From Siphonodentalium dalli (Eukaryota; Mollusca; Scaphopoda; Gadilida; Siphonodentaliidae): a stretch of 64,000 bases of DNA. The position numbers and the translations under genes were made by a program. Below the pieces are notes generated by a model. The model was not told where the DNA came from. It did not search any database and saw nothing but the letters and a program-made list of their open reading frames with translations. The stretch lies in contig CP136064.1 in NCBI GenBank assembly GCA_032622095.1, positions 177,398,247 to 177,462,246 of the forward strand, in the 5' to 3' direction. Shown piece after piece: positions 2,290 through 21,440 of this stretch. Positions within the stretch are counted from its first letter, which is position 1. Every line of letters starts with the position of its first letter.

Positions 2290-2649
2290 TTTTCATAATT
2301 CCATTACGCTAAATTTCTTTGACGAGAGAAGACAACGGATGGAAATTTATTTCGCTCTTGTTCGTAGTTCAATCGTCATCATTTTTCGTATTGTGTATTG
2401 TGAATAAACGATTAAATTCTGTTGTTTTGCCCCATGATTTGGAATAAGAATTGTTGGTAAATAATTACCTAGGTAGCAATTTCTTATTCAACAGATTGGG
2501 AAAGTTAAATTTTTTGCTTGAAAATTGCTGATAATATTTAGCATTCTCAGATTAAGGTAAATTCTAAAGGAAATTGTTGATACATTTACTAAGCTTTTTC
2601 TTTGTGGGAATTATATCATTTTCAAGTATCAGACTTTTCATAAATAATT
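2290..2649 (+). other. leader upstream of gag, no 5' LTR seen
   Basis: These 360 bases lie between repeat copy 1 and the gag start. They are AT-rich, contain no open frame, and show no similarity to the candidate 3' LTR at 19507-19776. I could not find a tRNA primer-binding site. The element is either 5'-truncated or its 5' LTR has been replaced. Confidence 0.4.
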
Positions 2650-5600
2650 ATGAAAGTTTATATAAACACAGCCGGATTTAACCAGCTGCAAGACATACCA
2701 CATGTTGGCCCAGCTATTGCCGCAGAAATAATCCATCTGCGCCGGCAAATTGATGTTATTTCGGAAATAGATCTCCGAGAACTCCCACGGTTCCGGAGCT
2801 CTAAAGACCAGTTGGGGGTAATAGATTTCACTCACCCCACGCCAAAACATTTGGTTGATAACTGGCTACCTAAAAGGTTCGAAAAGGGAGTGAACCAGGG
2901 AGAGTCTGGGAGTGAGTCTGATGAGGTTGATGAGGGGAAACCAGAGGATGTTCCTAGGAAGCCGTCACCTGATCTAATGACCCCTCCCCAAACCATTGAT
3001 AAAAAACGATCCGTTATGTTATCAACCCCCGAGAGAATGATTTTATACGATTCTGGGGGTGAGCAGAAGTCGGTTAGCGTCGGACCTAAATTGCCCCACA
3101 CACCTCCATCGAGGGGTCGTCCGGATGTGTCCGAAATGTTGGATTATATGCGGAGAGGTGTTTCGCCAATCTCCACTCGGACGGGGGTACCGACGTTTAG
3201 AAAAGAGAGTAGCGTTTCTGAGTTTCATACTCATAGCGACATCTCCACAGTCACCATGAGTTCAAGGGCTATCAGCTATGGGGATCGGCCTCTGCCAAGC
3301 ATGGTTCATGGGATGGGACTGCCTACTCAACCTGGGGCGCCAGCAACTTCGGTTGTTTCATTGGCCCAAGGTGGGTTAGAATTCCCTTCAACCGGGGCAC
3401 AAGCAGCTTCGGCTGTTTCGATGGCCCAAGCCATGTTTCCGCCTATTAGCAACCCTATCCGCCAACCAGCTAGTTGGGGCGCGCAAGCAGCCTCGGCCGT
3501 TTCGATGGCCCAAGCTATGTTTCCGCCTGACCCAATTAGCTCAGCAGTTAGTGTTGGATTTCAGCCAAGTCTAACTGCACCTGCACCATATAACTTTATT
3601 GGCCATGCGCCAGCTACTGTAACTGTTGGTTCGACAGCCGTGGTTTCAGCATCTGTACCATCGAATACATTTGCAGCCCCCAGTAGTTTTATGTCTATGG
3701 CACCTCAGCAGGTCACTCAAGCCTATGGTGAGAGGGTTCCTCCTATTCAATATGTTCCGGTTTATACCCAGGCTACCACTTTTGGTAACTATGGGCAGAT
3801 CACAGCCGGCACATTCACATCATCTTCATCATCATCCGGTCAGGTACCACCACACCAGAGTATACCAGCTCAGCCCGGTTATACACAACCGACTGCTGGT
3901 TTCTCTGGACAGTTGATTGGCCAACAGCAGGGTAACCAATCAATCGCCATGCCCCTCCCTTCGGGATACACACAACCTGGGTGTCAGGGATACGGTGCAA
4001 CTCAAGCTGCTGCTGGACAATCTGTACCTACCCAACAGCCGTTTTATCAACAGCCAAATCCAACGCCAACTGGGCCTTTCAACCCAGGGTGTCAAGGATA
4101 TGGTACGGCACAAGCTGGTGTTGGTCCAGTTCCACAACCCCAACCCTATCAGGGAATGCCAATGTCAAGTTCTCAGTTGGGTTATGCTAACGTTGGAAAC
4201 CCAGGCGTCAATGCCCAGGCTCCACACGAGCCCACTGTATCGGGTTTTGGGCATAATCCACCTCCCCCGGGACAGCCAGGAATACCAAACCCTGGGTATA
4301 ATCAACTTCCCCCGGGACAGCCAGGAATACCAAACCCTGGGTATAATCAACCTCCCCCGGGACAGCCAGGAATACCAAACCCTGGGTATAATCAACCTCC
4401 CCCGGGACAGCCAGGAATACCAAACCCTGGTTATAACCAACCTCCCCCGGGACATCCAGGGACATACAACCCGGGCGTAAATCAACCTCCCCCTGGAAAT
4501 CCATGGGCACAACCCCAGGGCGTTAATCAACCTCCCCCCGGGAATCCATGGGTACAACAACCCCAGGGCTTTAACCAACCACCCCCAGGAAATCCGTGGA
4601 TGCAAAATCAAGGTTTTCAGCAACCCGTCCCGGGAAATCAGGGGATGGCAAACCCCGGGAGAAATCCAATCGCCCCGGGGCCCGGAGGTTATCCACCAGA
4701 ACAACCTCCATATAATCCACAAGTCGCTCCTCACGGGAGGCATGGCGATTACAGACTGCCTCATATGCCAAAAGGTTTGTCATATGATGGTAGTGACTCG
4801 TGGCAAGCCTTTAGGGTAAAATTCACTTTATATGCCCAGTCGCAACGTTGGGGATGGGATGAGCAGCAGCAGGCTCTCTGCTGGTGTTTAAAAGGAAAAG
4901 CTAGTGAGTATTTCACGCTGCTTACCGAGCGTAATCCCTATCTGACAGTGGTTCAGTTGCTTGATGGGTTGGAAAATCGTTTCGGATTTAAAGATTTGCC
5001 CGAAACGACCCAACTTCGATTTCAACAAGCAAAACAAGTCCTTGGTCAGTCGCTGGAAGAATGGGCAGAGACTGTTCTCTCATTGGCCACACGTGCCTTT
5101 AGAGAATGTCCAGCCGACTTCACATTCAAGCAAGCAGTCTTGCGCTTCTGTCAAGGCTGTTCTGACACCAGGGCGGCCGAACTCGTTACCATGGAAATGC
5201 CTCAGTCCATGGAACAAGCCATCAACAGAATCCGATGGCATCAGCATAATTATGCTGCTATTCATGGCAGCAAAGTGTCTCGCAGAGACGTGCGCCATGT
5301 TTCGTCGGATACTGAGGATGACACCTCTCCTGTTAGGTCTGTAAGACAGACTGGTCGTGGTAGACCAAAGCAGCGAGGATATCCTTTCAGAGGCAAGCGC
5401 GAGGGTTCCGGTTCGGAGACTGGTGGTTCACCTGGCCCTCGTAGATTTTCGCCCGGCGCTCAAAGTTGGAAAACTTCGAGTGAAAATGCAACTTCCCAGG
5501 CACGTATACTAGCCTTGGAAACAAATTTGGAAACTCTCCAAAAAACAATGGAGAAGCTAACTAATGTTTTAGGGAAGATGGGGACCAATAAGCCTCAGTC

Positions 5601-5835
5601 TGGCACCCTTAGTCACTTTGATACAAAAGAGCCAGATTATAAAAATAGGTCAAGGTCACCTTCTCCTAAGGCCAAGGTCATTTGTTATGCCTGTCAGGGG
5701 GTGGGGCACTTTCAAAGAGACTGCCCTTCGCGGAATCTGGGAAATCGCCCGAACCGGGATAACAAAGTAAAGTTCAACGAGGATTTAAACGGGCACGGGG
5801 CGACTCCCGAGGTCGGAGCTCGATCCCAATCTTAA
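2650..5835 (+). CDS. Gag-like polyprotein of a Ty3/gypsy-type retrotransposon, with N-terminal HhH and zinc knuckle
   Basis: This 1061-residue frame encodes the structural protein of an LTR retrotransposon. Residues about 3-50 read as a helix-hairpin-helix (IPHVGPAIAAEII), a fold that usually contacts DNA backbone. Residues about 50-700 are a low-complexity linker rich in Pro, Gly, Gln and Ser, including 15-residue tandem repeats (4261-4635). Residues about 715-870 match the retrotransposon gag fold (WQAFRVKFTLYAQ, then LLDGLENRFG). A basic stretch and a short coiled-coil-like heptad region follow (about 950-985). A CCHC zinc knuckle (CYACQGVGHFQRDC) lies at about 1012-1025. The first Met is the only sensible start because the HhH begins immediately after it. 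The frame is intact, unlike the neighbouring pol, which suggests a fairly recent insertion. Pol lies in the -1 frame behind a slippery site. The length is large for a gag, mainly because of the linker. Confidence 0.85.
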   Translation: MKVYINTAGFNQLQDIPHVGPAIAAEIIHLRRQIDVISEIDLRELPRFRSSKDQLGVIDFTHPTPKHLVDNWLPKRFEKGVNQGESGSESDEVDEGKPEDVPRKPSPDLMTPPQTIDKKRSVMLSTPERMILYDSGGEQKSVSVGPKLPHTPPSRGRPDVSEMLDYMRRGVSPISTRTGVPTFRKESSVSEFHTHSDISTVTMSSRAISYGDRPLPSMVHGMGLPTQPGAPATSVVSLAQGGLEFPSTGAQAASAVSMAQAMFPPISNPIRQPASWGAQAASAVSMAQAMFPPDPISSAVSVGFQPSLTAPAPYNFIGHAPATVTVGSTAVVSASVPSNTFAAPSSFMSMAPQQVTQAYGERVPPIQYVPVYTQATTFGNYGQITAGTFTSSSSSSGQVPPHQSIPAQPGYTQPTAGFSGQLIGQQQGNQSIAMPLPSGYTQPGCQGYGATQAAAGQSVPTQQPFYQQPNPTPTGPFNPGCQGYGTAQAGVGPVPQPQPYQGMPMSSSQLGYANVGNPGVNAQAPHEPTVSGFGHNPPPPGQPGIPNPGYNQLPPGQPGIPNPGYNQPPPGQPGIPNPGYNQPPPGQPGIPNPGYNQPPPGHPGTYNPGVNQPPPGNPWAQPQGVNQPPPGNPWVQQPQGFNQPPPGNPWMQNQGFQQPVPGNQGMANPGRNPIAPGPGGYPPEQPPYNPQVAPHGRHGDYRLPHMPKGLSYDGSDSWQAFRVKFTLYAQSQRWGWDEQQQALCWCLKGKASEYFTLLTERNPYLTVVQLLDGLENRFGFKDLPETTQLRFQQAKQVLGQSLEEWAETVLSLATRAFRECPADFTFKQAVLRFCQGCSDTRAAELVTMEMPQSMEQAINRIRWHQHNYAAIHGSKVSRRDVRHVSSDTEDDTSPVRSVRQTGRGRPKQRGYPFRGKREGSGSETGGSPGPRRFSPGAQSWKTSSENATSQARILALETNLETLQKTMEKLTNVLGKMGTNKPQSGTLSHFDTKEPDYKNRSRSPSPKAKVICYACQGVGHFQRDCPSRNLGNRPNRDNKVKFNEDLNGHGATPEVGARSQS
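4261..4635 (+). repeat. in-frame 45-bp tandem repeat within gag
   Basis: Units of 45 bp starting CCTCCCCCGGGACAGCCAGG repeat at 4261, 4306, 4351, 4396, 4441 and 4486, then become slightly longer and more diverged. Each encodes a 15-residue unit of the form PPPGQPGIPNPGYNQ, later changing to PPPGNPW...GVNQ. The first four are nearly identical, suggesting recent expansion. The unit length preserves the reading frame. Confidence 0.9.
5784..5829 (+). promoter_or_regulatory. programmed -1 ribosomal frameshift signal between gag and pol
   Basis: TTTAAAC at 5784-5790 reads in the gag frame as T_TTA_AAC, an exact X_XXY_YYZ slippery heptamer. It lies 42 nt upstream of the gag stop (5833-5835). The -1 frame is open from 5763 across the stop and continues into pol. 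A GC-rich segment (5791-5828) follows directly, with possible stems such as GGG(5791)/CCC(5806) and CTCC(5804)/GGAG(5815), as expected for a stimulatory structure. Together these support a Gag-Pol fusion made by -1 frameshifting. Confidence 0.75.
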
Positions 5836-5958: not shown

Positions 5959-7965
5959 TAACCAGGGCTTACCTGACGCCAAGCATACACTTTAGGCGTC
6001 AGGGAACAGCTAGTGACCTCGACCTTTCGCCAATGACCCTTGACCTATCCAACGTGGTAAACAAACTTCACCATTTTTAATTTTTACGAGCAAGTTGTTG
6101 CAATTGTTAACGAATTATAGCACAAACTGTCAAATTTATTGAATAATACTATACAGTAAGACGCTCAATTATATATGGATATGACTTACAAATGTTAAAA
6201 CACATTTTCAGCTAGAATGACTTAGATTGCACTTATAAAACATTATGGGCCAACCAATTTCGGAAGATCTCCGTGCACCCAGCAACCACGGTGGTCAAGT
6301 GCAACGGTTGAAAATGTGTTTATGGCTACAAAAGGACATACATGTCCATCTATGATTGTGACGAATGTTTGGTTACTTGAGTCAGTGTGTGAGTGGTATA
6401 TGCTATTCACTCAAATCATATGAAATTTATTTTATTTACCATTTTTGTTGCAATTTATATTATTTTACCCCCCCCCCCATAGCTTCATAAAGTTCATTAA
6501 ATCAACCTTAATATGGAGTTCCTAAAGATTATTTTAATAACACCATGTAGGTGAAAAAAATCTCTTTTCTGCGGTATGTGGAACGTATTTAAGAACCCAA
6601 AATTAATATTTTAACTTATTTTTTAAAGATTAAATTTTTCTGCTGATTGTTGATAACTGAACAACTGAAGACAAGGCCAGTCTCATTCAATGGATCCTAA
6701 ATAATGAAATAATGATTACTGTCACTAATTGTGTTAACTGGTCAGCATGTTAAATTGTTAATTTATTTTTAATTAATTCAATATATATTATTTTATTTAA
6801 TTATCTATATATTAAATTATATTGACATTTTTTGTATTCTTTAAACACAAATATATTTGTCAGGCAAAAAAAAGAAAGAGTATGTTTCCGATAATGGAGC
6901 GAAAAAATTAGGGTAGGTACAGCCTTCATAATTGCCTACGGCAATCAGCATTCAATGCCGAAGCAATTTGCTGAAGCAAACTAGGCCACTGCATACTGTT
7001 GCCGTAGTGTATTGCCGAAGCCAAACAATCTGAATAAAGAGGGCTGTAGGTAGGTAGGGATTTTTTTTTCTATTTTATTTTGATATTTTTTTATCCAGCT
7101 GCAGAAATATTGAATCACCTCGACTGAAGAGACATACAATGCCAACTTGTGTTGTGGGAAAAGTATTGCTTGATTATAAAAACAGTGGAAATATACATTA
7201 TGATTGATAAAAGATCAAACTTACCGGTACTTCATGCTTAAGTATGTTTTTTATTTAATATTCACATACCACATTTTCCTAAAGTTGGCTATCAACTTGG
7301 TACGAAATTGATGTCACTAACTTTTTTATAATTTTACCCATGACACGACTATAATACTGTACTTGTATTGTGACGACTTCATCCCATTGTCTGGAGGTAG
7401 CCAGTACACCCAACCTAGCATGCCTGGTTTTTGGAAACAGTAGCTGTACCCCTACCATATGTGGTGATAACCTCTATACATGTATATATACTTACAGTAA
7501 TGCCCTAAGTACTAAATCCTGAAAAGTTACCCATAACTCTGCTGTAGATAGAGAGTCAATTACTTATGGCATTACTGTACAGATACACACCACCATGATT
7601 GTTGATAGTGTTCCTATCTGTACTCTCGGGCTCCAAATAAAAGTGCAGGGGGGGATTCCATTGCAAGTTAATAACAGTGCAGACCCAAAAAATACCACAG
7701 GGGAAACTGAGCAAAACATCAACTATTAATAAACAATTATTTGTATAGTACATGCAATATAGGCCAAGCAATCACACATGGTAATCAACAAAATATGTGT
7801 CATGTGGTGTTTATTCAATATTTAAATGTTCACATGTATGCAATATACTTGAACTTGTACATGCATAAAGTTATAAGCTCATCAATTTGGTATCAGAATC
7901 ATATACAAATCTTGATTTTGTGCTGTTTTCAATTTGCATAGCCTCAAAATTTATAAACTTGCAGA

Positions 7966-8441
7966 CCCAAACAGCCCTGGGAATTGACCTAGGCAATAGG
8001 CAATGCCTAGGTAAAAGCAGAGGCAAAATAAGTTTGCCTAGGAAATTATATTGCCTAGGTAAAACAAGTTCATTGGGTTACTAAAATTGATTTGTGTCTA
8101 TCAGAAATAGAACCTCTTTAGCCAAAATGACTTCCTTAAATCACTATTTACATATATTGTCCTAAACTTGATTCCATGGTACTGGGCCATTAACTAGCTA
8201 CCCATAAGGGCACTAGTTTTGGAGATGCTTTGTGGAATGTATATATATGACGAGTAGTGGCCTGGAAATTTTCTCCAAAATAACTAAGCATTTCAGGTTA
8301 TTATTGAATCATATTGATTTGAGATGGCAATATTGTTGCAAAATTGCCTAGGTAAAATCTGTTTTTGCCTAGGCTGATTTCTTTCACCTAGGCAAAAATA
8401 TTGCCTAGGCAAATTTTCCTTAATTACCAGGGCTGCCCAAA
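7966..8441. mobile_element. 464-bp MITE with 6-bp target duplication
   Basis: Termini CAGCCCTGG (7972-7980) and CCAGGGCTG (8427-8435) form an inverted repeat, flanked by CCCAAA on both sides (7966-7971 and 8436-8441). Subterminal regions are packed with the word TGCCTAGG(T/C)AAA in both orientations, a typical arrangement for transposase subterminal binding sites. It contains no gene. The CAG start is hAT-like, but a 6-bp duplication is shorter than the usual 8. Confidence 0.75.
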
Positions 8442-8887
8442 TAACCACTATGCAGGGGCAGATTTCCAAATAAAATAACAAATATGCATGCATGTTTATT
8501 TGGAACCCAAGAGTATGTTCCATAAGTCCAAAACAAGGCATACAGGTAAAGCAGCCAGGCATGGGATCCACTCTCATAAAATTAAAATTGCAAAATTCAT
8601 GCCCATCAATCCACAACCCATCACACACTTCACGTCACTTTTCACAGGGATATGTTATTAGAAGCCATGTGTTTTGTACACTAATAATCATCAATATTTA
8701 TGAGCATTAGTCGTAAAAACAGAAATAAAAAATTTAGAAAAATTTTTCTCCAAATATCAATAAACACTTAGGGTCGGCGGGTTATTTTTTAGGGTCGGTC
8801 GATGCACGGAAACAAAGCATCTTTATTTTCTGGCCTCATTCAACATTATTTCTTTCATTTGCATTTCGACCATATTTCTTTAAATTT

Positions 8888-9272
8888 TAAAGTGATGTGA
8901 AACACTCCAGTAGGGTGACCAAATAGAAATGGTGAATAATCTTCCTCAAAGTACTTAGTTACATTTTACAAATATTATTTCCAAATTCACAACACACACC
9001 GTCATTCTTATATATTACTGAAATGCAGTGACTTTCGTTGGCCGAATCATTTTTGTAAATTTATCGTTGATAGTTGCATCCCGAATCTAGTCATAAATAT
9101 TTACATTTGAGTGTAGTTCAGGCGATGTTTTCAATGGAGTGGTACGGTCGATTTGTTTCAGATTTTTGGCTCTGAGCCTCTGATAGTAGAATGCTACATT
9201 CTCCCAGTTGGCATGGTGCCTGAATACTAACTTATCAGTTTCACGTGCCCGAACAAGTCCATAATATGTCTT
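8888..9272 (+). repeat. dispersed repeat, copy 1 (pair with 47691-48062)
   Basis: This stretch starts at TAAAGTGATGTGAAA and ends near ATAATATGTCTT, and aligns over its whole length with 47691-48062 in the same orientation. Long shared words include TCTATGGAGTGGTACGG-like and AGTAGAATGCTACATTC. Divergence is moderate, so the copies are older than the 945-bp repeat pair. No coding potential is seen. Confidence 0.75.
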
Positions 9273-10518
9273 TAATATATTAACTTTATAATGTTTAATA
9301 ATAAAGGTTGTGTTAAACATGCTGCCTCATTACATTATTAACATTGGATTACCCGTATATGTCTGCCCGAGTCTCAATGATCTAGTCATTTGGACAGACA
9401 TTTGTTTACTACAGTTCCTTATGCCAAATTTCTAATTTGTTTATGAATAGAACCTGGTGTGAAATTGTCTACAATGGAGGTTACGAGCAGTTTACCTCAT
9501 CAAAATACAAACCATTAATAGAACCATGCATATATAGCATCAGTTCTGACCGTCGCTCGCAGACGAGTATGATTCGCCACACCGTAGCATTTCAACCAGG
9601 CTCTGCTCAATGCTCATAATTAATTTTGACCAAATGTATATTTGTTTTCAATATTTAATAATTTGTGCAATAATAGCAAATAAGTCTCAATAGAAATATG
9701 CATGTTTTCAAGACTGAGTTGACAATAATGAAATTGATCATCTGGACGATACAGACACCGTGAAATAACATCAACCGAAAGAACCAACAAAGAACATCAA
9801 CATATTTAGCATATATGTACAACCCAACTAATAGAGCTATAAATATGACTTGTACGTTAAATACCGTAACGAATCAACACAGATATATATCTATTGGCCT
9901 ATCATATATGTAAAGATAAGTTTATTGACAATCAAGTCACCTTCACAGGTAGAGTAATTTAGATAAAACAGACAAACAAGTAAACAAATAGATGGACAGG
10001 ACATATGAGAAAGTATTGATTGAAAGTTGATTGGTGAAATAAAGTGATAAAAACTTGCCTAATCTTCATGTCCAACAGTCATCAGATATAGAATAGGGCA
10101 TTAATGGCCCTACAATAACAAATAGATTTTGTGATCCGTTAGTTAGTCACTAAGTTAGTGAATTCAGTAACTCAGTTTATAATTTATTGCCCAATATCGT
10201 GCATCCATCAATTCGATCGATTTATCTCGATATGCGGAGCGCGCACTCTCTTTTCTTGTGCTTTTACTCAATGATGATAAATTTTATGATTTAAGTCTTG
10301 TGTCATTTCGTTTTCAAGTAGATTTAAACTTGATTTTTAATTTAGATCCATTGTTTTCGAAAAACGTGTTATCAACCCGGAAGTCAGTGTTCGTGTTAGT
10401 TAATGTCATCCCAACAAAGCGCCCGTAGATGTCGAGGGGCGGAGCTTAATCTTAAATTAAGATGGCCGCAGCTGTTATCAGACGTCTATTGGAACAAGAC
10501 GGCTGTCAATCAAGACTA

Positions 10519-11764
10519 ACGATACCCATGCCGTCGTAGACACAGCCGCCGACGTCACCATTATCTCTGATAAATTATTTCACCAACTTAGCCCTAAGCC
10601 ACCCCTAATTAAATCCTTACAATTTAATACGGCGGCTCGTGACGGTCACATGGAGGGTATGTTGGTGGGACCCATAGACATTACTATTGGGGAACTCGAG
10701 TGTAGTGAAAATATATATGTGGCACCCATTGAAGATCCCATGCTTCTTGGGATGGATTTTCTCACTAAATATGATGCGAAAATTGGGGCAAATAAGGGTT
10801 CTATCTTCTTGGGAAAGTGTCGGCTTCCTACAATTTCCCCGGAAAACCCAAAAGTGGCTAAAATTTCTAGAATTATAGTCAATCAACGAACCGTTATACC
10901 CCCTCAGTCAGTTGTGTTACTACAGTGCGACGCTGTCCCACCCTTAGCTGATTTTACTATTGAACCGAATCCACATCTTAGTGAGTATGTTTTTCCAACT
11001 TTGCACTCGGGGTATGATCACCCAACAGTATGTTTTGTAAATTCTCATAATTCAGAGGTAACCTTGGATAAATCACAATGTGTGGGTGAAGCTTATGAAG
11101 TTGATGTGATTGAAACCCCCGTCATATCATCCGCACCCAAGCCGGTCGTTGTTCCGGTTGAAAGCTCACCCCAGGGATCGCCTCAAAATAGTTCTGAAAA
11201 TAACCTGGATGGAAACTTGCAACTTCCAGAGTATTTGCAGAGCTTATTTGAGCGTTCTTCAACATTACTGTCAGGAAACGACATAGCACGCCTTAAACGA
11301 CTGCTTCATGCATTTCAGGACGTGTTTGCAAAGGACGAGTTTGACTTGGGTACTTTCTCTCAAATTGAGCACAGTATTCCTCTTCTAGAGGGAGCTCGTC
11401 CAATTAAACAGCCTATGAGGCGAACGCCAGCTTGCTTTGCCGATCAAGAGGAAGCTCATTTAAAAAAACTTTTGATGGCCAAGGTCATCGAGCCCTCTGT
11501 GTCGGAATGGGCATCAGCCCCCGTCTTGGTTAAAAAACGGGACGGTTCTATTCGCTGGTGCATAGATTATCGCGTCGTAAATTCTGTAACACGCAAAGAC
11601 ATCTACCCCTTGCCACGAATTGACGAGTGTCTTGACACACTTAGTGGAAATTCATGGTTTGGAAAGGCAGACTGTTTGGCTGCGTACCATCAGGTTACGA
11701 TGTGTAAAGAAGACCGTGCTAAGACAGCCTTTCTCACCAAATACGGGATTTTCAATTTCATTAA
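10519..11764 (+). pseudogene. pol fragment: aspartic protease and N-terminal half of reverse transcriptase
   Basis: The frame resumes at the target-duplication copy and reads into a retroviral-type aspartic protease (active-site VVDTAADVT, catalytic Asp codon at 10539; later LLGMDFL at about 10740). A connecting segment follows, then the RT fingers and palm (KKRDGSIRWCIDYRVVN at about 11530; first catalytic Asp codon at 11670 in KADCLAAYHQV). At 11761 the frame enters a TTAA-flanked insertion and reaches a stop shortly afterwards (11792). No frameshift or stop is seen within the fragment itself. The gene is therefore recently broken rather than decayed. It continues at 13330. Confidence 0.85.
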
Positions 11765-13331
11765 CCCTTTGAACCCTGGCGCCCCACAGTGATCGACACC
11801 CTGACCCGGGGCTCCCAGTGGTATGTCCGCTTAAATTAGATAGTTTCTAGTAGCATGGTGTTGATTATGTTCAAATTGCGACACCAGTCTGAAACTTTAC
11901 AGGGTTGTCCCCCATGGATCAGCGATCATTATAAGATCGCGAGACTTTGCCTCGCGACAACTCCTTGGTAACGGTTGCTAGGCAACTACCCGGAATTGAC
12001 TGGAAAATGTAAATATATAGCTTATAGCGTCGTAATTCAACCTCAGTGGTTGCGTTTTTTGATGCAGGTACTACCCTAACGTGAAATTTGAGATATACCG
12101 GACCAGAATAGTGAACCAAATATCCCATTTAAGGGTAGCAACGGTTGCTAAGCAAATACCACAACTGATCGAATGACATAATTGCACTAACCATTCAGTG
12201 GTATGTTTTGCCTTAATTTAGACAGTGTCTAGTCGCATGGTGTTGGTTATGTTGAAAGGGGACACCTACCTGAAACTGTGCAGGCATGATATATGCATGC
12301 ACGGACCACTGATCATTGTAAGATCGGGAGACTTTGCCACCCGATCTCGCCTTAGAAACGGTTACTAGGCAACTACCCGAAATTTGCAGGATAAACGAAT
12401 TCTAGCTTATAACGTTGTAATTATACATCAGCGAATTGCGTTTCGATGCAACCAATATCCTAATGTGAAATTAAGATATACCTGACCATGCGCGAGTAAG
12501 TCAACTTGATATGCGATAGACTTTTTGCTGCATGTGGCACAACAGAGACTGATATTACAGAGACCAGAAACAACGTAATTTCCCGTAACATATCGTGGCC
12601 CCATTGTTCAAGTAAGCTGTCTAGATTGTGTCTACTATACTAACATGTGAAACATGCAACAAAATGTCATATATAGCGCCACATTTAACTTAAACGCATT
12701 TTTTAAAATGAATTATAGTCTGCGCCCATGCGCATATTTTCCTAGCCATTTCTAGCGGGCAGCCAATCCATATAGACACCTTTGCCAGCGCTGACTTCAA
12801 TAGGCCAATTTAAATATATATATTAGTGGGTATGTCGTGTATAAGTACGTTATAAACCATTTATTTGTCATTGCGCTAGTCTGCGCATGCGCGAATAAAT
12901 CAACTTCATATGCGATAGACCCTTCCCCATATGTAGCAGAACACTGGTTAATATACACGAGGGTAATTTAAACTGAAATTGTGTGTCTAAATTACGTCTG
13001 TTCTGTACACACACGGGGAACACGAAATTATATGCCGTAAATATAGCGGCATAGTTCGCTTAAAATATCGTATGTTTTTGTAGATTATATGCTATGCGCA
13101 TGCGCATATATTTCTACCCGATACTAGCGGTCAACCATTCCATACGCACCATGGGCGCCGCTGACATATGTGGAGGCAATTTAAATATAAATCAGTGGGT
13201 CAGACGCTCGTTATACTATATATAAATTTGCTACCGAATCATGTCGTCGCTGCACCGAAATATCGGTGTTACGGGATATAGTCACGGTTCGTTTGCACCT
13301 AAATATCGGTGTTACGGGTTCAAAGGGTTAA
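11761..13331. mobile_element. piggyBac-like MITE (TTAA target) inside the reverse transcriptase
   Basis: TTAA occurs at 11761-11764 and 13328-13331, bounding a 1563-bp insert (11765-13327) with termini CCCTTTGAACCC and its reverse complement GGGTTCAAAGGG. TTAA duplication plus CCC-starting ends is the hallmark of the piggyBac superfamily. Keeping one TTAA leaves the RT frame continuous, which supports clean insertion. There is no transposase frame, so it is non-autonomous. Inside are direct repeats: a unit starting CAGTGGTATGT at 11816 and 12196 (about 380 bp apart), and a CATGCGCGA(G/A)TAA unit at 12487 and 12886 (about 400 bp apart). Confidence 0.85.
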
Positions 13332-16116
13332 AATGCCTTTCGGCCTTACTGGAAGCCCGTTTACTTGGTGTCGGGTTATCAATTTGGTATTGCACGGTTT
13401 GAACTGGGATATCTGTTTGGGGTACTTGGACGACGTAGTTCTGATGGGAAATTCGATTCGAAATCACTTGGAAAACATCGAAAAAGTACTATCCCGGTTC
13501 CGAAAATATAACCTTAAACTCAAGCCCAGTAAATGTGTGTTTTTTCAAAAAAGTATTGAATTTCTGGGCAGAATTGTGAGCGAGCAAGGTGTGAAAATGA
13601 TGGAATCATCCGTAGAGGTTGTCCATAGCTGGCCCGTACCCCAGTGTACCAGAGATGTCGAAAGTTTCTGCGGGCTAGTAAATTATCATCGCGCTTTCAT
13701 AAAAAATTATGCAGAGTTAGCACGACCTCTATATGACGTAACTGGTAAGCATAACTTTAAGTGGGACCTTGATCAACAAGTAGCATTTGACAATCTCAAG
13801 CAGGCGTTAACATCTCCACCTGTTTTGGCCCTACCAAATTCAACCGATATGTATATCTTGGATTCCGATGCTAGTAATTTTGCGATCGGTGGGGAATTAA
13901 TTCAAGTCCAAGATGGTCGGGAGAAAGTTATAGCCTATGGCAGTTTTGTGCTGTCCCCACAACAAAGGCGTTATTGTACTACTCGACGAGAACTTCTCGC
14001 AGTAGTACGGTTCACACGTCAATTTCGTCACTATCTGTTGGGTCGGAAATTTTTATTAAGAACCGATCATAGTAGTCTCAGGTGGTTGATGAGTTTCAAA
14101 GAACCTCAAGGGCAACTTGCAAGGTGGTTAGAGGAATTAAGCATGTACGATATGGTCATTGAGCATCGCAAGGGAACTTTGCACTTAAATGCCGATGCGC
14201 TGTCCAGGATTCCTACGGACGGCTCATGTGAAGAGTATTTTCCAGGGTGTAAACTCTCAGATCTCCCTTGTGGCGGGTGTAAATATTGCACTCGTGTATT
14301 TAATAGCTGGACCAAATTTGAAAGTACTGTTGATGATGTGGTTCCCCTAACCAAAGGTTCTATAACATTTTCCGAATTATCTGGGAACCCCACCCCGGCA
14401 GTTCGCCAAGTAGACAGTCAACCGGACTACCCTCTAGGGTTTTTGTGGGAGCCGGGAGATGAGTGGGATAATCCCTACGAACCAATCGGTTATGTCTGTT
14501 CTAACACTGGGTGGACCCATTCTCAGGTTGATTTAGAATTGGTGCAGGAATTAAATCCAATAGTTAGGGTACGGCAAACAACAACCCCGCAGGACACTTC
14601 ACTCCTGGCGAATGTTTGTACGCTGGAAGAACTCACTGAAATCCAGCGTCACGACCCTGATTTATTACCTGTAATTGGGTGGTTGGAAACTGGGGAAGAG
14701 CCCAATGAAGGCGAACTATTTATTAGTAGCCAAGCCACTAAATATATCTGGATCAACCGGCAACGCTTCCTTATAAAGAATAAATTGCTATACAAAGTTA
14801 AACGGGATTCCCAACAAGTCTTGGTTATTCCCCGTAAATTCGCCACTGAAATATTGACCCTCGCCCATGACATTCCTGCTTCTGGCCATCAGGGTGTAAC
14901 ACGTACCCGAGAACGAGAACGTCAAAACTATTATTGGTATGGGGTTAGTGACGATATTGAAACCTTTGTGACTGCCTGCCCCCAGTGTAATCAAGGTAAG
15001 AAGGCTGTTAGACATGCTAAGTGGGAACAGGTATCCTACCACGCTGGGGCCCCTATGGAGCGGGTACACATTGATTTCTTGGGACCATTGCCGGTTAGCA
15101 ATAAAGGTAATAAATATATTTTGGTTATGACCTGTCAGTTTACCAAATGGGTCGAATTCATAGCATTGCCCGATCAGACAGCCGAAACAGCAGCCTTTGC
15201 AGCTGTTAAAGAATTCTTTTCAAGATTTGGATGTCCGCTCCAAATTTTCTCTGATCAAGGGCCATGTTTCGAATCAAAACTATTTAAGACCATGTGTGAA
15301 GCCCTTCAGATTCATAAGGCTCGTACCACGCCATATCGACCATCCTCGAACGGGGCTGCCGAACGCCAGAACCGTACGTTGATGAATGCCGTCCGGTGCT
15401 ATATTGATAAAAACCATAAAACCTGGGATAAATATCTATCGCAACTCGCCGGGGCAATGAGATCGTCGGTACACCGCCTTACTGGTTTCACACCAAACAA
15501 AATGATGCTGGGCCGCGAAGTAAATCACCCGTCAGATCTCGTTTTTAATTTTAATTCTAAAATACCAGAATATGCAAGCGCTGCTGAATATGTGCAAACG
15601 TTGGTAAAAGAATATAAAGACTGTCACGAAATCGCGCGTGAGCACTTGAAGGCTGCCTGTAAGAAAATGAAGCGAGATTATGATGTTAAAATAAATAAAT
15701 ATGAATATAAACTTGGTGATTTAGTATACTTGCTGGATACAGCTACAAAGAAAGGGAAAACCCGAAAACTTTCTCCATTTTGGAAAGGTCCAGGCATCAT
15801 TGCTAAAGTATACACTCCATATCTCTATAAAATCTTCTTTCGGTCCGCCACCAATGTGGTAAATCATGATCGCCTGAAAAAATGTCATGATAAAGTGATC
15901 CCGCCATGGATAACTAAATGTTCAGAGCGCTTCCGAACCACGGGAGAAGTCACACTTGAAAGATCTACCGGCGTTTTTTGCTTATGTCAGAAAAAGTTTG
16001 GTGGGAAATTTATGCTCCAGTGTGATTACTGTAATGATTGGTACCATGGTGAATGTGTAAACATTACTCAAGAAGAGGCCGACCAACTAGATACCTATCG
16101 ATGTCCGAGATGTTAA
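13330..16116 (+). CDS. pol remainder: RT palm/thumb, RNase H, DD35E integrase, C-terminal PHD finger
   Basis: An open frame without internal stops carries the rest of pol. The RT palm box is GYLDDVV (Asp codons 13429 and 13432). RNase H follows, with LDSDAS at about 13858, the RRELLAVVRF Glu, RTDHSSLRW and the HLNADALSR end. Integrase has an HHCC zinc domain (14863-14990) and a catalytic core with Asp 15073, Asp 15253 and Glu 15361, the last two separated by 35 residues (DD35E). A basic C-terminal domain precedes residues encoded by 15976-16116, which form a full C4HC3 PHD finger (FCLCQ, CDYCNDWYHGEC, CPRC) including the Trp typical of methyl-lysine readers. A Met at 13309 lies in the inserted MITE and is not the natural start; the element would make this as part of Gag-Pol. 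The Ty3/gypsy order (RT-RNase H-IN) is clear. Confidence 0.9.
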   Translation, partial: KMPFGLTGSPFTWCRVINLVLHGLNWDICLGYLDDVVLMGNSIRNHLENIEKVLSRFRKYNLKLKPSKCVFFQKSIEFLGRIVSEQGVKMMESSVEVVHSWPVPQCTRDVESFCGLVNYHRAFIKNYAELARPLYDVTGKHNFKWDLDQQVAFDNLKQALTSPPVLALPNSTDMYILDSDASNFAIGGELIQVQDGREKVIAYGSFVLSPQQRRYCTTRRELLAVVRFTRQFRHYLLGRKFLLRTDHSSLRWLMSFKEPQGQLARWLEELSMYDMVIEHRKGTLHLNADALSRIPTDGSCEEYFPGCKLSDLPCGGCKYCTRVFNSWTKFESTVDDVVPLTKGSITFSELSGNPTPAVRQVDSQPDYPLGFLWEPGDEWDNPYEPIGYVCSNTGWTHSQVDLELVQELNPIVRVRQTTTPQDTSLLANVCTLEELTEIQRHDPDLLPVIGWLETGEEPNEGELFISSQATKYIWINRQRFLIKNKLLYKVKRDSQQVLVIPRKFATEILTLAHDIPASGHQGVTRTRERERQNYYWYGVSDDIETFVTACPQCNQGKKAVRHAKWEQVSYHAGAPMERVHIDFLGPLPVSNKGNKYILVMTCQFTKWVEFIALPDQTAETAAFAAVKEFFSRFGCPLQIFSDQGPCFESKLFKTMCEALQIHKARTTPYRPSSNGAAERQNRTLMNAVRCYIDKNHKTWDKYLSQLAGAMRSSVHRLTGFTPNKMMLGREVNHPSDLVFNFNSKIPEYASAAEYVQTLVKEYKDCHEIAREHLKAACKKMKRDYDVKINKYEYKLGDLVYLLDTATKKGKTRKLSPFWKGPGIIAKVYTPYLYKIFFRSATNVVNHDRLKKCHDKVIPPWITKCSERFRTTGEVTLERSTGVFCLCQKKFGGKFMLQCDYCNDWYHGECVNITQEEADQLDTYRCPRC

Positions 16117-16206: not shown

Positions 16207-16236
16207 TATACGTGAACTATGAGGGATATATAAATT

Positions 16237-16367
16237 GACTCAGTCAATCCAGGACTGCCAGTCCAACCGTCAGACAGTTCGTCTGCAGCTGAGAAGCTTG
16301 ATAGTGATTCAGTCAATCCAGGACTGCCAATCCGACCACCAGACACTTCGTCTGCAGCTGAGAAGCT
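16237..16367 (+). repeat. tandem duplication upstream of ORF3
   Basis: A unit starting GACTCAGTCAATCCAGGACT and ending GCAGCTGAGAAGCT occurs twice in a row. It lies in the same frame as ORF3 without a stop, so it may be coding if translation starts upstream of 16474 or after splicing. Confidence 0.7.
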
Positions 16368-16473
16368 AGAAACCTCAACCAAAGACACCTCCACACCTCC
16401 CGTTGGCCTACTTGTAGGACCACCAATCGTTACAGACAGTTCGTCTACAGCGGGATGGGCGGAGATACCAAGC

Positions 16474-18999
16474 ATGTCAGGTATGAATTTACCGCCTGAT
16501 ACCGATGAGTCAGACCCCAATCAAATGTCAGTAACTGATATTCAGCACTCGATAGAAGTGCTGCTTGGTTTAACTTTTAATAATAACGAGGGTGAAAATC
16601 CTGATCTCATTGATAAATTACCTGATCTTTCAGTTGCGGAGCCCGTACGGACTCCATCTGTTGAAGGAATGCAGGTAGATTTAATTGAATTGTCGGATAG
16701 ACAACCAAGTTTGACTAAGGATCTACCTGATAGTCCTCTTGGGGAAACCAGTTGCACCCAAGGGATAGATATGCAGGTGGATCCCAACTTAAACTTGGAT
16801 AATATTCCAGTAAATAGTCATCCATTGGAGCTATTAATTGATGAGGCTTTACATCCTCCCACTCGCATTGTTGACAAACAATGTGTCAGATATGGTTTTA
16901 ATGTTGACACTGAGAATAATCCAGTGTCGCAAATTTCACAAGCCTCAATTACTAACTCAATGTCAGACATAGAGGGTCAAAGTCCCCCGAAACCACAAGA
17001 TCGGTGTGTGTTCAGGGATTGTGAGCGGCCTGTTAAGGGTCAGCAGAGACACCATTTTTACAGCCAACATGTAAAACCTTGTTGGTGGCAGTTTGACACC
17101 TATCCTGGGCCTATCCCTACCGTTTTCCGAGTACAAGTCCGAGAAGACTTAATTAACTTTGCTCGGATTCTAATTCCAACTGCTCGGGAGCTGGGTGAGC
17201 AGGAACTGCTTACCCAGTTGCGGAAATTACTAAATGATCAGTGGGACTACCAGGCAATTCCAGTGCCTTGTATTCTGGGGACAATAGCACTTCGGAATAT
17301 TTCCATGTTTGGCACTGACCTGGGGGTTGCCCTTCCAAAAAGCGGGTACAGCATATCGCCCTACATTACGTCCAATGCATGTCTCACTCATTGGCGTGTT
17401 TTAGCGGCTATACTCAATCGACTGCCAGCCAAAGATATTAACTTATTTCAACAGTCTAATGCACATCTTTGGTTAATTGAGATGATGCGGGAACGCATCC
17501 AAAAGGGTCGAATTGGGGAATTGGCTTTAAACGGGGCTCGAAAGAAAGCGTCAGGGTTAACAAGACCTGAAAAGGCCCCTGATGCATTGTCGGCAGCCTG
17601 TATGATTAATGACTTCTACCTCACAGAGCACCAAGTTTTAATCACTCAGGCCATGTCTGTCAAATCCTCTTCCATTTCAGGGGTTAAACCGGTGGAAGGT
17701 CCAACACCACGGCCCAGCCGGAAAGAGAGGCGAAGGGCACGATATAAAACTATTTGTATCGCCCGAGAGCAGAAGTTTTCTGAGCGGAAACTGTACCATT
17801 CAGTTTCCGTTGCTCCGCCGGAGCCTAAGAAACTCAAACTTTCTACCTCATCCTTCACCGCAGTGCCTGTCACCTCCTCTCGGGGCACTGTGCCTACATT
17901 ATCCTTCTCCGCAGTGTCTTACAATCACCCTCCGGGCACTGTGCATAAATCACCCTCCCCCGCAGGGCGAGTCACCTCTGCTCGGGGCCCTGTGTCTACC
18001 CCATCATCCACCGCCGTCTCTTCCACGGTGTCCTCCCTTCCAATACCACCACTCATAAAGTCGCCTCCCGTCCTACCCCGACCCACTTACAAGGCAGTGT
18101 TAACCTCCATGAAAAAGGCTCTTGCACGTCAACCCGGCATCCCCAAACTTAAACTAACCGGGATTGACTCTCATTTTCATTTAGACCGAATGTGCTCGAG
18201 TCATAAATTAAAACCCCAAACCACTGCTTCGGAGGCGATTAGTCTGACTAATGTCCCTGTTTCTGCGGCCGTCACTGTCATCGGTGGCGTGCAAGTATAC
18301 TGTGATCCGGATACTTATCCAGACATTCAAACTTTGCACTGTAATCCACAGTGGAAAGTTGCGGTAGGGTGTCACCCCAAAAAGTTTCGCAAGTTACTTG
18401 TGCCGGCGATGATGGATAAGTTTAAGGAGCTTATAAATCATCCTGCAGTAGTTGCCGTCGGGGAGTTTGGGCTTGATCGCTCCATTAAGCTCTCCGATCG
18501 AGATCTCCTGATGCAGGATGCCCTTTTTCGGCAAATTTTACATCTGGCCCGTCCCACCAACAAACCTATAATTTTGCATCTAAGAGGGCCCTCTGACCAA
18601 CATATGAGTTCGGATGTGAGTTTCACTGCTTTAGAGGCAGTACGCACCGTAACCCATAGGGATCAAGTTATCCACTTCCACTGCTTTTGTGGATCTAAAC
18701 CAATGGTGGATTCTTGGTCTTATCACCAGCCCAACACTTCGTTCGGGTTTACAACAATTTGTGCTGGATTTAATGACGTCCAGCGGGAAGCAGTTAAAGC
18801 CATTCATCCTTCCAAAATTCTTCTGGAGTCGGATGCGCCCCATTTCGGGTCTGTGGGCCGAGCTTTCACTTCCCCCGCCGTCATCGGTGAAGTGGCCGTG
18901 TCATTAGCACGGATCCTGGGTACAAGCCCAGAGGAAGTGTTAGTGCGCTCTACACAGAACGCCCAACGTATTTATGGCATTCAGCCAATCCGCCAGTAA
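16474..18999 (+). CDS. ORF3: zinc-finger-like N-terminal region fused to a TatD-family metal-dependent nuclease
   Basis: This intact 841-residue frame directly follows pol, where retroviruses place env. The C-terminal region (residues about 560-838) reads as a TatD-type amidohydrolase-fold nuclease. It has SHFHLD (His567, His569), VGEFGLD (Glu664), ILHLRG (His702), IHFHCF (His734) and LLESDAP (Asp787), matching the order of TatD metal ligands. Residues about 178-199 contain CVFRDC...RHHFYSQH, a possible CCHH zinc site. Residues 200-400 are probably globular but not recognised. Residues 425-540 are basic then Ser/Pro-rich, possibly a nuclear-targeting linker. The first Met (16474) is used, but the frame is open without a Met back to 16234. 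That upstream part encodes two near-identical Ser/Pro segments (16237-16367), so an internal or spliced start is possible. No signal peptide or membrane segment is seen, which argues against an env. I infer a role in the retroelement cycle; the function is unproven. Confidence 0.75.
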   Translation: MSGMNLPPDTDESDPNQMSVTDIQHSIEVLLGLTFNNNEGENPDLIDKLPDLSVAEPVRTPSVEGMQVDLIELSDRQPSLTKDLPDSPLGETSCTQGIDMQVDPNLNLDNIPVNSHPLELLIDEALHPPTRIVDKQCVRYGFNVDTENNPVSQISQASITNSMSDIEGQSPPKPQDRCVFRDCERPVKGQQRHHFYSQHVKPCWWQFDTYPGPIPTVFRVQVREDLINFARILIPTARELGEQELLTQLRKLLNDQWDYQAIPVPCILGTIALRNISMFGTDLGVALPKSGYSISPYITSNACLTHWRVLAAILNRLPAKDINLFQQSNAHLWLIEMMRERIQKGRIGELALNGARKKASGLTRPEKAPDALSAACMINDFYLTEHQVLITQAMSVKSSSISGVKPVEGPTPRPSRKERRRARYKTICIAREQKFSERKLYHSVSVAPPEPKKLKLSTSSFTAVPVTSSRGTVPTLSFSAVSYNHPPGTVHKSPSPAGRVTSARGPVSTPSSTAVSSTVSSLPIPPLIKSPPVLPRPTYKAVLTSMKKALARQPGIPKLKLTGIDSHFHLDRMCSSHKLKPQTTASEAISLTNVPVSAAVTVIGGVQVYCDPDTYPDIQTLHCNPQWKVAVGCHPKKFRKLLVPAMMDKFKELINHPAVVAVGEFGLDRSIKLSDRDLLMQDALFRQILHLARPTNKPIILHLRGPSDQHMSSDVSFTALEAVRTVTHRDQVIHFHCFCGSKPMVDSWSYHQPNTSFGFTTICAGFNDVQREAVKAIHPSKILLESDAPHFGSVGRAFTSPAVIGEVAVSLARILGTSPEEVLVRSTQNAQRIYGIQPIRQ

Positions 19000-19491: not shown

Positions 19492-19776
19492 AAAAAGAGG
19501 GAATAGTGCTGTAATAATGGCCCGGTCGAGTCTATAAATACAGTGCGGGATTCCGGAAGTGACGGAGGAACCGGCACATAAATAGGCCGATCGAAGTCCC
19601 GCAGCTCAGACCGAAACAACAAGACTTATCGACAACACCTGTAATTTAATATTGATTATTTATGATGATTTGTGATCCATTGCCATCGACGTTGATTCTA
19701 CATGTATAATTTGTGAGTATTATATTTCTATTATATTATATTGTAAGCTATTAATATGTAGCGTCTAATTTTTACA
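19492..19776 (+). mobile_element. polypurine tract and candidate 3' LTR
   Basis: AAAAAGAGGGAATAG (19492-19506) is a good polypurine tract directly before TG. The following 270 bp (19507-19776) start TGCTGTAATAA and end TTTTTACA, so they are TG...CA bounded. They contain a TATA box TCTATAAATA at 19531. This fits the position expected for the 3' LTR of the Ty3/gypsy element. It is a candidate only, because no matching 5' LTR is present in the window. An alternative left edge at TGTAACAA (19473) is possible. Confidence 0.5.
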
Positions 19777-19779
19777 ATA

Positions 19780-20724
19780 TGTACCCTGATTTCACTCCCT
19801 TCCATTACACTGATTATCCTTTCATATCTTTTGTAAATCAACCATCCATTTGTCACTGAACACTTGATCCGTCGACTATTCTTCCATATCATACATATAT
19901 CTGTCCATTCCAATCTTCTTACATTCGATAAAAATAAATTTGTGCTATTACAACTTTAACTCATGTTTCTTGTCATTTTTCCCATCCTGACAGAATAAAC
20001 AATGGCATGTTCTAGCATTGTAGATTCATAAAACCTTCAAACTTTGTACAATATAAGTTCACCCTCTAGGCTGCTGGACTATTATTGTCCCCCGAAAAAT
20101 TTATTTTTGGGGGACTATAGAAACGGGGTACGTCCATCGCGCCGTGTGTTCGTCCGTCCGTTCGTCACACTTTTGAGTACCTTCATGGTGTAATCATCTC
20201 CTCCTACAGATTTCATCCCAGAGATTTGAAACTTCAGAATATTGTTGCCCATATATTGAAGATGTGCAACATGTATATAGATGACGGAAAGAAAAAAAAA
20301 ATTTGACGGAGTTATTAACCCTTTTCGACTTAGAATATTTCAACATTTTTTAGAATTTTCTGTATGAGGGTACCCTCATGGTGTAATCAACTCCTCCTAC
20401 AGTTTTCATCCTAGAGATTTGTAACTTCAGAATATTGTTGCCCATATATTGAAGATGTGCAACATGTATATAGATGACGGAAAAATTATTTTTTTACGGA
20501 GTTATTAACCCTTTTTGACTTCGAAAATTTCAACATTTTTTATAATTTTCTGTATGAGGGTACCTTCGTGGTAACGTACGGAAAATCCAATTTTAAAGAG
20601 CAGTTATAAACTGTTTTACAAACATCTCCGTTATTTCGTTAATATTACGTTTTTCTAAATATTTTTTTTCTCTAAATACGTATTTCAGAAAAAACACATA
20701 ATCTGAGAAATGTTATATCGACGA
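19780..20724 (+). repeat. 945-bp dispersed repeat, copy 2
   Basis: This is nearly identical to 1343-2289, including the GGGGGACTATAG phrase and two 190-bp subunits. It starts four bases after the candidate LTR end. At its right edge, CGAAATAACGGAGATGTTTG (from 20723) mirrors CAAACATCTCCGTTATTTCG about 100 bp upstream (about 20620-20640), forming a hairpin that copy 1 lacks. Confidence 0.85.
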
Positions 20725-21440
20725 AATAACGGAGATGTTTGTGGAATAAACCAGTTAGGAAAAAAAAAATGTTAATTTCATCGCACCCCATAAGTACCCT
20801 CTGGTGAGAGCTTGGACACAAATTTGTCCGGAGTTTTTCTCAGTCGATTCTTGATCAATTTCCGTGAAACTTGGCACAGATATCAACCATCATGGGAACC
20901 TGTGCTCCTGCGATTATGACGTCTTTTTTTGGTGGAGTTATCCCCCCTTTTTCGACTTAGAAATTTTTCGCAACATGTATACTTTTGTCCGAGCTTTTAT
21001 TCCTACATTTTTCGGTCAATTTTTTTAAAACGTGGCACAAATATTTAGTACCATGGAAACTTGTGCACCTGCGATTATGACATCTATCCGGCATTTTTTA
21101 GTGGAGTTATCCCCTTTTTCGACTTAGAAACTGTTTTTGCAACATGCATAATTTTGTCCGAGCTTTTATTCCTACATTTTTCGGTCAATGTTTTTTAATC
21201 TTGGCACTGATATTTAGTACCATGGGAACCTGTGCACATGCGATTATGACGTCTGTCCGACATTTTTTGTGTGGAGTTATTCCCCTTTTTCGACTTCGAA
21301 ATGTTTTCGCAACATACATAATTTTGTCCAAGCTTTTATTCCTACATTTTTCGGTCAATAGGTTTAAGATTAGGGTTATGGTTGTACACCTGCAATGGGA
21401 ACTGTTATTTTATTATTTTAACTAAATGTTTACTGACATG
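20725..21440 (+). repeat. continuation of the GGGGGACTATAG-type repeat, degenerate tandem units
   Basis: Units of roughly 150-170 bp repeat around the phrase CATGG(G/A)AACCTGTGC(T/A)C(C/A)TGCGATTATGAC (about 20890, 21050 and 21220). Each also has a TTTTGTCC(G/A)AGCTTTTATTCC phrase and CTTTTTCGACTT(A/C)GAAAT. No coding sequence is apparent. It is likely the body of a larger element of which 19780-20724 is the left part. Confidence 0.6.

What the first reader, a model, noticed from the sequence alone, without database searches (positions are those of the whole stretch)
16474..18999. LTR retrotransposon with a TatD-type nuclease in the env position
The frame after pol is intact and shows all the TatD metal-ligand motifs in order (H567xH569, E664, H702, H734, D787). 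They are fused to a zinc-finger-like N-terminal half and a basic linker. The frame has no signal peptide or membrane segment, so it is not an env. A retroelement carrying its own DNA 3'-exonuclease/endonuclease-like enzyme could use it for processing cDNA ends, trimming flaps at integration, or countering host DNA sensing. Those roles are guesses; the domain reading and position are direct.
Basis: partly seen in the sequence, partly recalled or inferred. Interest (0 to 1): 0.9.

Follow-up and report, generated by a model that had tools for sequence, protein, structure and literature searches.

The report
Retrotransposon lineage carrying TatD nuclease gene
An animal's jumping genes of the LTR retrotransposon type carry, after their usual genes, a third gene with an intact TatD nuclease domain that has stayed with them through long divergence, so the enzyme probably does something useful for how they copy or insert themselves.

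Summary
Confirmed and widened. Frame 16234-18999 (921 codons) is intact and ends in a full TatD_DNase domain (PF01026, E=4e-34) with all metal ligands (fourth His is H736, not H734). It is an element gene. The window's own assembly (2.23 Gb) has 150 scored TatD places over cut-off, 55 in open frames of 900 aa or more. Of 49 scored pol places (the window's own included) 45 were checked and 44 have TatD within about 4 kb downstream on the same strand. Pol and TatD distances correlate over 11 element sequences (r=0.92); TatDs without pol nearby are 23-25% identical. In 3 of 4 copies tested both LTRs are identical, with 4-bp target duplications. ORF3 is zinc finger, helical HWR domain, linker, TatD; four other families add a Tpt1/KptA RNA 2'-phosphotransferase. 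The window copy is broken: no 5' LTR, two nested insertions. What the TatD cuts is not shown; processing RNA-DNA ends of the cDNA is my best guess.

The parts
1343..2289 (.). left copy of a 947-bp direct repeat (99.7% to 19780-20725) abutting the truncated 5' side of the element; not the LTR
   Evidence: other copies' homology stops at 19779, before the repeat
2290..2643 (+). remnant of element leader; the 5' LTR and the first 446 bp (L027) or 493 bp (L023) of leader are missing here
2644..5835 (+). gag frame, 1063 codons (first ATG 2650): PNMA-type capsid and CCHC knuckle over cut-off; HHH_3 below cut-off (22.9 of 27 bits)
5959..10518 (.). nested insertion between gag and pol, absent from near copies, 9-bp target duplication ACGATACCC (5950-5958 / 10519-10527)
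10519..11764 (+). pol, first part: protease and N-terminal part of RT (frame 10461-11792)
11765..13327 (.). nested MITE-like insertion in RT, terminal inverted repeats CCCTTTGAACCC, TTAA target duplication
13328..16116 (+). pol, second part: RT C-terminal part, RNase H, integrase H2C2 and core, C-terminal PHD finger
16234..18999 (+). ORF3, 921 codons, intact (first ATG 16474)
   Evidence: same gene 3' of pol in other copies
17005..17115 (+). zinc-finger-like region of ORF3 (CVFRDC...H...H; CPxxC...H...H in relatives)
   Evidence: by motif, no Pfam hit
17134..17553 (+). helical domain with conserved NSxAxLxHWRxL motif
   Evidence: block pLDDT 40-82
17719..17838 (+). basic linker with nuclear-signal-like runs (RKERRRAR, PKKLK)
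   Evidence: pattern only
18163..18978 (+). TatD_DNase domain; ligands H567, H569, E664, H702, H736, D787 (ATG numbering)
19492..19506 (+). polypurine-tract-like AAAAAGAGGGAATAG next to the LTR
19507..19779 (+). 3' LTR (273 bp, TGCTGT...ACAATA, TATA-like box); L023 and L027 have it at both ends
19780..20725 (.). right copy of the 947-bp direct repeat, outside the element

Best explanation
It is the third gene of a Ty3/gypsy-type LTR retrotransposon lineage: gag, pol (protease, RT, RNase H, integrase, in most scanned cases a PHD finger), then ORF3 = zinc finger + helical HWR domain + linker + TatD metal-dependent nuclease. Shown: intact frame, domain, ligands, predicted fold, linkage to pol across diverged families, constraint on the protein, recent copies with identical LTRs. 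Inferred: ORF3 is made as a separate protein, reaches the nucleus or particle through its basic linker, binds element nucleic acid by the zinc finger and HWR part, and its TatD domain trims RNA or DNA 3' ends or the RNA strand of hybrids (tRNA primer, polypurine remnants, cDNA 3' ends) so that a clean cDNA end can be integrated. In some families a Tpt1/KptA domain adds a second RNA-end-processing activity.
For: PF01026 E=4e-34; fold; six ligands in 20 of 20 pol-linked sequences, window included. 19 of 20 TatD loci that I picked by frame length and score have pol upstream on the same strand; of 49 scored pol places (window included) 44 of 45 checked have TatD downstream. Pol-TatD distance correlation 0.92, 0 of 5000 permutations; 0.80, 4 of 5000 without L026, L024 and L037. 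pN far below pS between families. LTR pairs identical over 264-274 bp with 4-bp TSDs in 3 of 4 copies whose 5' side was fetched. Leads to mechanism only: E. [quoted passage not shown] Tpt1/KptA in four families; in copy L023 47 bases whose complement reads as a tRNA 3' part with CCA sit between 5' LTR and leader, so primer handling can fail.
Against: No activity, expression or localisation was measured. Nothing ties TatD to a particular step, and Ty3/gypsy elements in general (from recall) work without it. The tRNA trace is one copy. One of 45 checked pol places (L054) shows no TatD in the 1,201 bases read, and 5 of the 19 found by fetching are partial in the stretch read, one more (L046) has 5 stops. 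ORF3 has diverged far more than pol between the window family and L024 (TatD 70%, integrase 92% identity), which fits an arms race or recombination as well as a core replication role. Within near copies TatD-only dN/dS reaches 0.72 on 10 changes.
Confidence: 0.55

Rival explanations
1. Same element gene, but the nuclease acts against the host: it cuts host nucleic acids or defence intermediates (small-RNA precursors, R-loops, cytosolic DNA) rather than element cDNA.
For: ORF3 evolves faster than pol (TatD pN 0.20 against integrase 0.045, window to L024); its N-terminal 254 residues are the least conserved part (pN 0.43); basic nuclear-signal-like runs in the linker; optional Tpt1/KptA fits RNA repair after host nuclease attack (inference).
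Against: TatD ligands are strictly kept; TatD distances follow pol; no host target known to me.
Confidence: 0.27
2. The TatD fold is kept for binding or structure and the enzyme activity is not what is selected.
For: No activity shown; the N-terminal zinc finger and HWR motif are also conserved.
Against: All six ligands kept in 20 of 20 pol-linked sequences down to about 24% identity.
Confidence: 0.1
3. A host TATDN gene captured by, or lying next to, this one copy.
For: The finding alone could not exclude it; TatD places without detected pol exist in the genome (L012-L017).
Against: 43 of 44 other checked pol places carry it; those other TatDs are 23-25% identical; 19 of 20 pol-linked TatDs and nine animal or environmental relatives form one group, 86/96, not starred.
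Confidence: 0.01
4. ORF3 is an env-like protein and the TatD similarity is incidental.
For: Position 3' of pol.
Against: No hydrophobic segment, full TatD profile and fold.
Confidence: 0.01

Closest known systems
Ty3/gypsy (Metaviridae) LTR retrotransposons
   Same: PNMA-type gag with CCHC, protease-RT-RNase H-integrase order, LTRs, 4-bp TSDs, polypurine tract
   Different: third ORF with zinc finger, HWR domain and TatD, plus PHD finger after integrase; clade within Ty3/gypsy not placed by phylogeny
Env-bearing LTR elements (errantiviruses; Introduction of PMC12440569)
   Same: extra gene; its place after pol is from recall
   Different: a nuclease without membrane segment
Phalaenopsis gypsy elements with an AlkB-type m6A demethylase ORF (abstract of PMC9289625)
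   Same: Ty3/gypsy lineage that fixed an extra ORF for a nucleic-acid-modifying enzyme
   Different: different enzyme class, plant host; there the activity was assayed
TatD/TATDN nucleases (E. coli TatD, human TATDN1-3)
   Same: PF01026 fold and metal ligands
   Different: joined to zinc finger and HWR domain and encoded by a mobile element; 16-24% identical to the 14 named TatD rows among the best PDB matches
Chromoviruses with C-terminal chromodomain (Introduction of PMC12440569)
   Same: extra (chromatin-reader-type, from recall) domain at the end of pol
   Different: here a PHD finger, found in 5 of 7 scanned pols, not a chromodomain

Membership tests
Ty3/gypsy LTR retrotransposon | pol order protease-RT-RNase H-integrase | tested here: met
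Ty3/gypsy LTR retrotransposon | flanking LTRs with short target-site duplication | tested here: met
   L023, L027, L024: identical LTR pairs, TSD CAAC, CAGT, GAAT; the window copy has only the 3' LTR; in L020 no 5' LTR was found in the stretch fetched
Ty3/gypsy LTR retrotransposon | polypurine tract and primer binding site | tested here: inconclusive
   polypurine tract present; the sequence after the 5' LTR, TGACGTT..., does not start with the usual TGG (recalled); one copy carries tRNA-like sequence
Ty3/gypsy LTR retrotransposon | RT groups with Ty3/gypsy in a phylogeny | not tested
   no named reference RTs were fetched
Troyka lineage | CG...CG termini and 3-bp TSD (PMC12440569, Introduction) | tested here: not met
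   termini TGTTGT...ACAATA, 4-bp TSD
TatD nuclease | PF01026 match over cut-off | tested here: met
   118.6 bits, cut-off 27
TatD nuclease | metal ligands HxH, E, H, H, D | tested here: met
   20 of 20 pol-linked sequences
TatD nuclease | TatD barrel fold | tested here: met
   predicted model and Foldseek
TatD nuclease | metal-dependent nuclease activity | not testable with these tools
   needs an assay
Retroviral or errantiviral env | membrane segment | tested here: not met
   maximum KD19 1.59
Retroviral or errantiviral env | signal peptide | not tested
   no signal-peptide program was run
Host TATDN gene | closest relatives are host TatD genes; not tied to pol | tested here: not met
Tpt1/KptA 2'-phosphotransferase (other families' ORF3, not the window's) | PF01885 over cut-off and R-H-R-R residues (residues recalled) | tested here: met
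   PF01885 in L030, L031, L036, L032; tRNA 2'-phosphotransferase 1, 7yw3, E=4.6e-28 for L030; the four residues were read only in L030 and L032, so met for two of four

The most novel reading that the evidence does not exclude
An old, animal-wide lineage of LTR retrotransposons evolved its own nucleic-acid end-processing protein (zinc finger, HWR domain, TatD, in some families also Tpt1/KptA) that handles the tRNA primer and RNA-DNA ends of its cDNA, a step usually credited to RNase H alone (recalled); many invertebrate genes named TATDN2-like or TatD are really this retroelement gene.
Probability: 0.35. Interest if true: 0.92.

Novelty: new variant of a known kind. Interest (0 to 1): 0.8.

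Why it matters
Acquired enzymes in LTR retrotransposons are described as rare (abstract of PMC9289625) and point at steps of the replication cycle or of host conflict that gag-pol does not cover. Here a whole clade keeps a nuclease, sometimes with an RNA-repair-type enzyme, in a genome with recent copies, so expression and biochemistry are directly testable. It also warns that multi-copy TatD/TATDN2-like gene models in invertebrates may be retroelement ORFs.

Tried and rejected
The 947-bp direct repeat 1343-2289 / 19780-20725 was first taken for the LTR pair; rejected when homology of six near copies stopped at 19779 and copies L023 and L027 showed a 273-274-bp LTR.

Two independent captures of TatD: in the tree L037/L018 sit with the four host-type TatDs (89/85), but one clade for all element TatDs plus animal relatives is not rejected (AU p 0.299), and L037's ORF3 has the same zinc finger and HWR motif; left as one origin or a domain swap.

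Viral collection: ORF3 alignment A1 gave no relatives, pol no matches, A3 one 22% match (L011, not followed). Genome contigs gave ten bacterial TatDs. A protein search with residues 250-420 of P0001 found only itself. The protein searches scored only the 7996 and 7994 candidates sharing most words, so the list of relatives is partial.

A genome-wide count of Tpt1/KptA and an ORF3 search of the genome could not be run. Literature: TatD with retrotransposon (14 papers listed), TatD with LTR retrotransposons (2 papers), at least two of TatD/transposable element/mollusc (25 of 720 listed); two wider gypsy searches (searches listed of 45 and of 43). Judged from titles, abstract beginnings and a few passages, none of the listed papers describes an element-encoded TatD. 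PMC5408686 mentions a TATDN2P2 retrocopy (passage); PMC5840709 was not opened. TatD with Gypsy failed, as did PHD finger with Gypsy. No search was answered for Tpt1/KptA in retrotransposons. So novelty is 'not found', not 'absent'.

Dropped before counts: three of 52 pol rows that were further fragments of listed copies; the L028-L036 whole-ORF3 dN/dS (fused against unfused frame, 0.639) from the quoted range.

Full report
WHAT WAS CHECKED. The frame 16234-18999 is open for 921 codons, first ATG 16474. hmmscan gives one Pfam family at E up to 1, TatD_DNase, residues 644-915, whole profile, E=4e-34. AlphaFold2 on residues 255-921 with 18 rows (mean pLDDT 66.5) gives a confident TatD part, weaker helices for the middle domain and a low-confidence linker. 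Of Foldseek's 17 best PDB rows 14 are named TatD or deoxyribonuclease.

THE ELEMENT. Upstream lie gag (PNMA and CCHC over cut-off, HHH_3 below it) and pol (protease, RT, RNase H, integrase, PHD). In the window the RT is interrupted by a MITE-like insertion with TTAA duplication (11765-13327), and a 4.56-kb insertion with a 9-bp duplication lies between gag and pol. Homology of six near copies (L020-L023, L026, L027) ends at window 19779. Of four copies whose 5' side was fetched, three (L023, L027, L024) show 5' and 3' LTRs identical over 273, 274 and 264 bp, with 4-bp duplications CAAC, CAGT, GAAT; no 5' LTR was seen in L020. So the window's 3' LTR is 19507-19779; its 5' LTR and part of the leader are gone.

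ORF3 BELONGS TO THE ELEMENT. The window lies in an assembly of 2.23 Gb in 9 contigs. PF01026: 529 candidates, 150 scored (the window's own among them), all over the cut-off; 106 of 150 sit in open frames of 400 aa or more, 55 of 150 in 900 or more. Of 20 loci that I chose by frame length and score, not at random, 19 have pol upstream on the same strand; the one without (L038) has a CCCH-like finger by eye. Searching with the second half of the window's pol: 6731 candidates, 49 scored, 52 rows of which three are further fragments of listed copies. Of these 49 places (the window's own included), 25 have one of the 150 listed TatDs 1.4-3.2 kb downstream on the same strand. Of the other 24 I fetched short stretches for 20, and 19 contain TatD on the expected strand: 5 are partial in the stretch read, L046 has 5 stops, and the twentieth, L054, shows none in 1,201 bases. 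Four were not probed. Together 44 of 45 checked, 43 of 44 without the window.

DEPTH AND SELECTION. Identity to the window runs from 99% down to about 46% in the second half of pol and from 100% to 24% in TatD. The integrase and TatD distance matrices correlate (Mantel r 0.923, 0 of 5000 permutations; 0.80, 4 of 5000 after removing L026, L024 and L037). All six ligands are kept in 20 of 20 (19 loci plus window). NG86: window to L024, TatD pS 0.74, pN 0.20 (dS near saturation); RT pS 0.38, pN 0.06. Whole ORF3 between near copies gives dN/dS 0.15-0.63; TatD alone up to 0.72 on 10 changes; RT and integrase alone exceed 1 in some near pairs on a handful of changes. The higher synonymous divergence of ORF3 than of pol in the window-L024 pair suggests exchange of ORF3 between families.

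RELATIVES ELSEWHERE. A protein search returned two mollusc proteins (Dreissena, Mytilus) and, with a profile, eight more rows (Mytilus coruscus and trossulus, Ptychodera flava, Pinctada, four without organism name). Seven of these ten show both the zinc finger and the HWR motif besides TatD; P0003 and P0004 start after the finger, P0006 is TatD alone. In a tree of 41 rows (left out beforehand: P0004, L002, L004, L009, L011, L014, L016, L019, L038) 19 of 20 pol-linked TatDs and the nine animal or unnamed rows fall in one group (86/96, not starred), in which the two kinds are intermixed. This suggests, but does not show, that the other animals' proteins are element genes too. L037/L018 fall with four host-type TatDs (89/85), but a single element clade is not rejected (p 0.299). 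That those host-type places are host genes is my reading; L013/L014 and L015/L016 are near-identical pairs at different places, so some may themselves be mobile.

EXTRA DOMAINS. ORF3 of L030, L031, L036 and L032 (four families; L029 is a near copy of L030) also has a Tpt1/KptA domain, E from 7e-32 to 1.4e-47; in L030 it aligns to tRNA 2'-phosphotransferase 1. Pfam did not find it in L024, L033, L034, L035, L037, the fused L028 or the window; L039 was checked by motif only, negative. L028 is a 2082-aa pol-TatD frame without the KptA of its near copy L036, so probably an in-frame deletion. A PHD finger ends 5 of 7 scanned pols (window, L031, L033, L035, L036; not L028, L037).

MECHANISM. [quoted passage not shown] I infer end processing of RNA-DNA intermediates as the most likely role (0.55 for the whole statement), action on host nucleic acid next (0.27). 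Copy L023 carries between 5' LTR and leader 47 bases whose complement reads as a tRNA 3' part ending in CCA (the reading, and that it is serine-type, are by eye and recall; ARAGORN called no tRNA gene). One copy is a hint, not a test.

NOVELTY. Extra genes in LTR elements are known (env, chromodomain: PMC12440569 Introduction; AlkB-type demethylase: PMC9289625 abstract). My answered literature searches listed no paper that, from title and abstract start, describes an element-encoded TatD; several others failed. I rate it a new variant of a known kind.

Noticed in passing
L030:3308-7783, L031:3653-7822, L032:3779-7816 (reverse-complemented locus), L036:4763-7684: ORF3 of four other families also holds a Tpt1/KptA RNA 2'-phosphotransferase domain N-terminal to TatD.
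   Followed up: partly
L040:863-909: In copy L023, 47 bases after the 5' LTR read as the complement of a tRNA 3' part with CCA, absent from L027 and L024: possible trace of over-copied or unremoved tRNA primer.
   Followed up: partly
1343-2289 and 19780-20725: A 947-bp direct repeat (99.7%) flanks the 5'-truncated window copy exactly, like a very long target duplication or a rearrangement.
   Followed up: partly
5959-10518: 4.56-kb nested insertion with 9-bp duplication ACGATACCC; class not determined.
   Followed up: no
11765-13327: MITE-like insertion with TIR CCCTTTGAACCC and TTAA duplication inside RT.
   Followed up: no
window against L024: ORF3 is far more diverged than pol (TatD 70%, integrase 92% identity), suggesting ORF3 exchange between families.
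   Followed up: partly
L037:6248-7786 and L018:1384-2286: A deeper pol-linked lineage: L037 has a 513-aa ORF3 with the same zinc finger and HWR motif; its TatD is about 24% identical to the window's and nearer the host-type TatDs in the tree.
   Followed up: partly
L012, L013, L014, L015, L016, L017: TatD frames of about 300 aa preceded by a CCCH-like finger (by eye), no pol found beside them, two near-identical pairs at different places.
   Followed up: no
2644-5835: gag begins with a weak helix-hairpin-helix match (below Pfam's cut-off here, above it in L037's gag) and has a long proline-glycine-rich tandem repeat.
   Followed up: no
PMC6962438 (passages only): The giant squid Hox cluster figure legend lists a 'TATDN2' among the non-Hox genes, next to transposon-like names; it could be this kind of element gene. 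Not tested.
   Followed up: no
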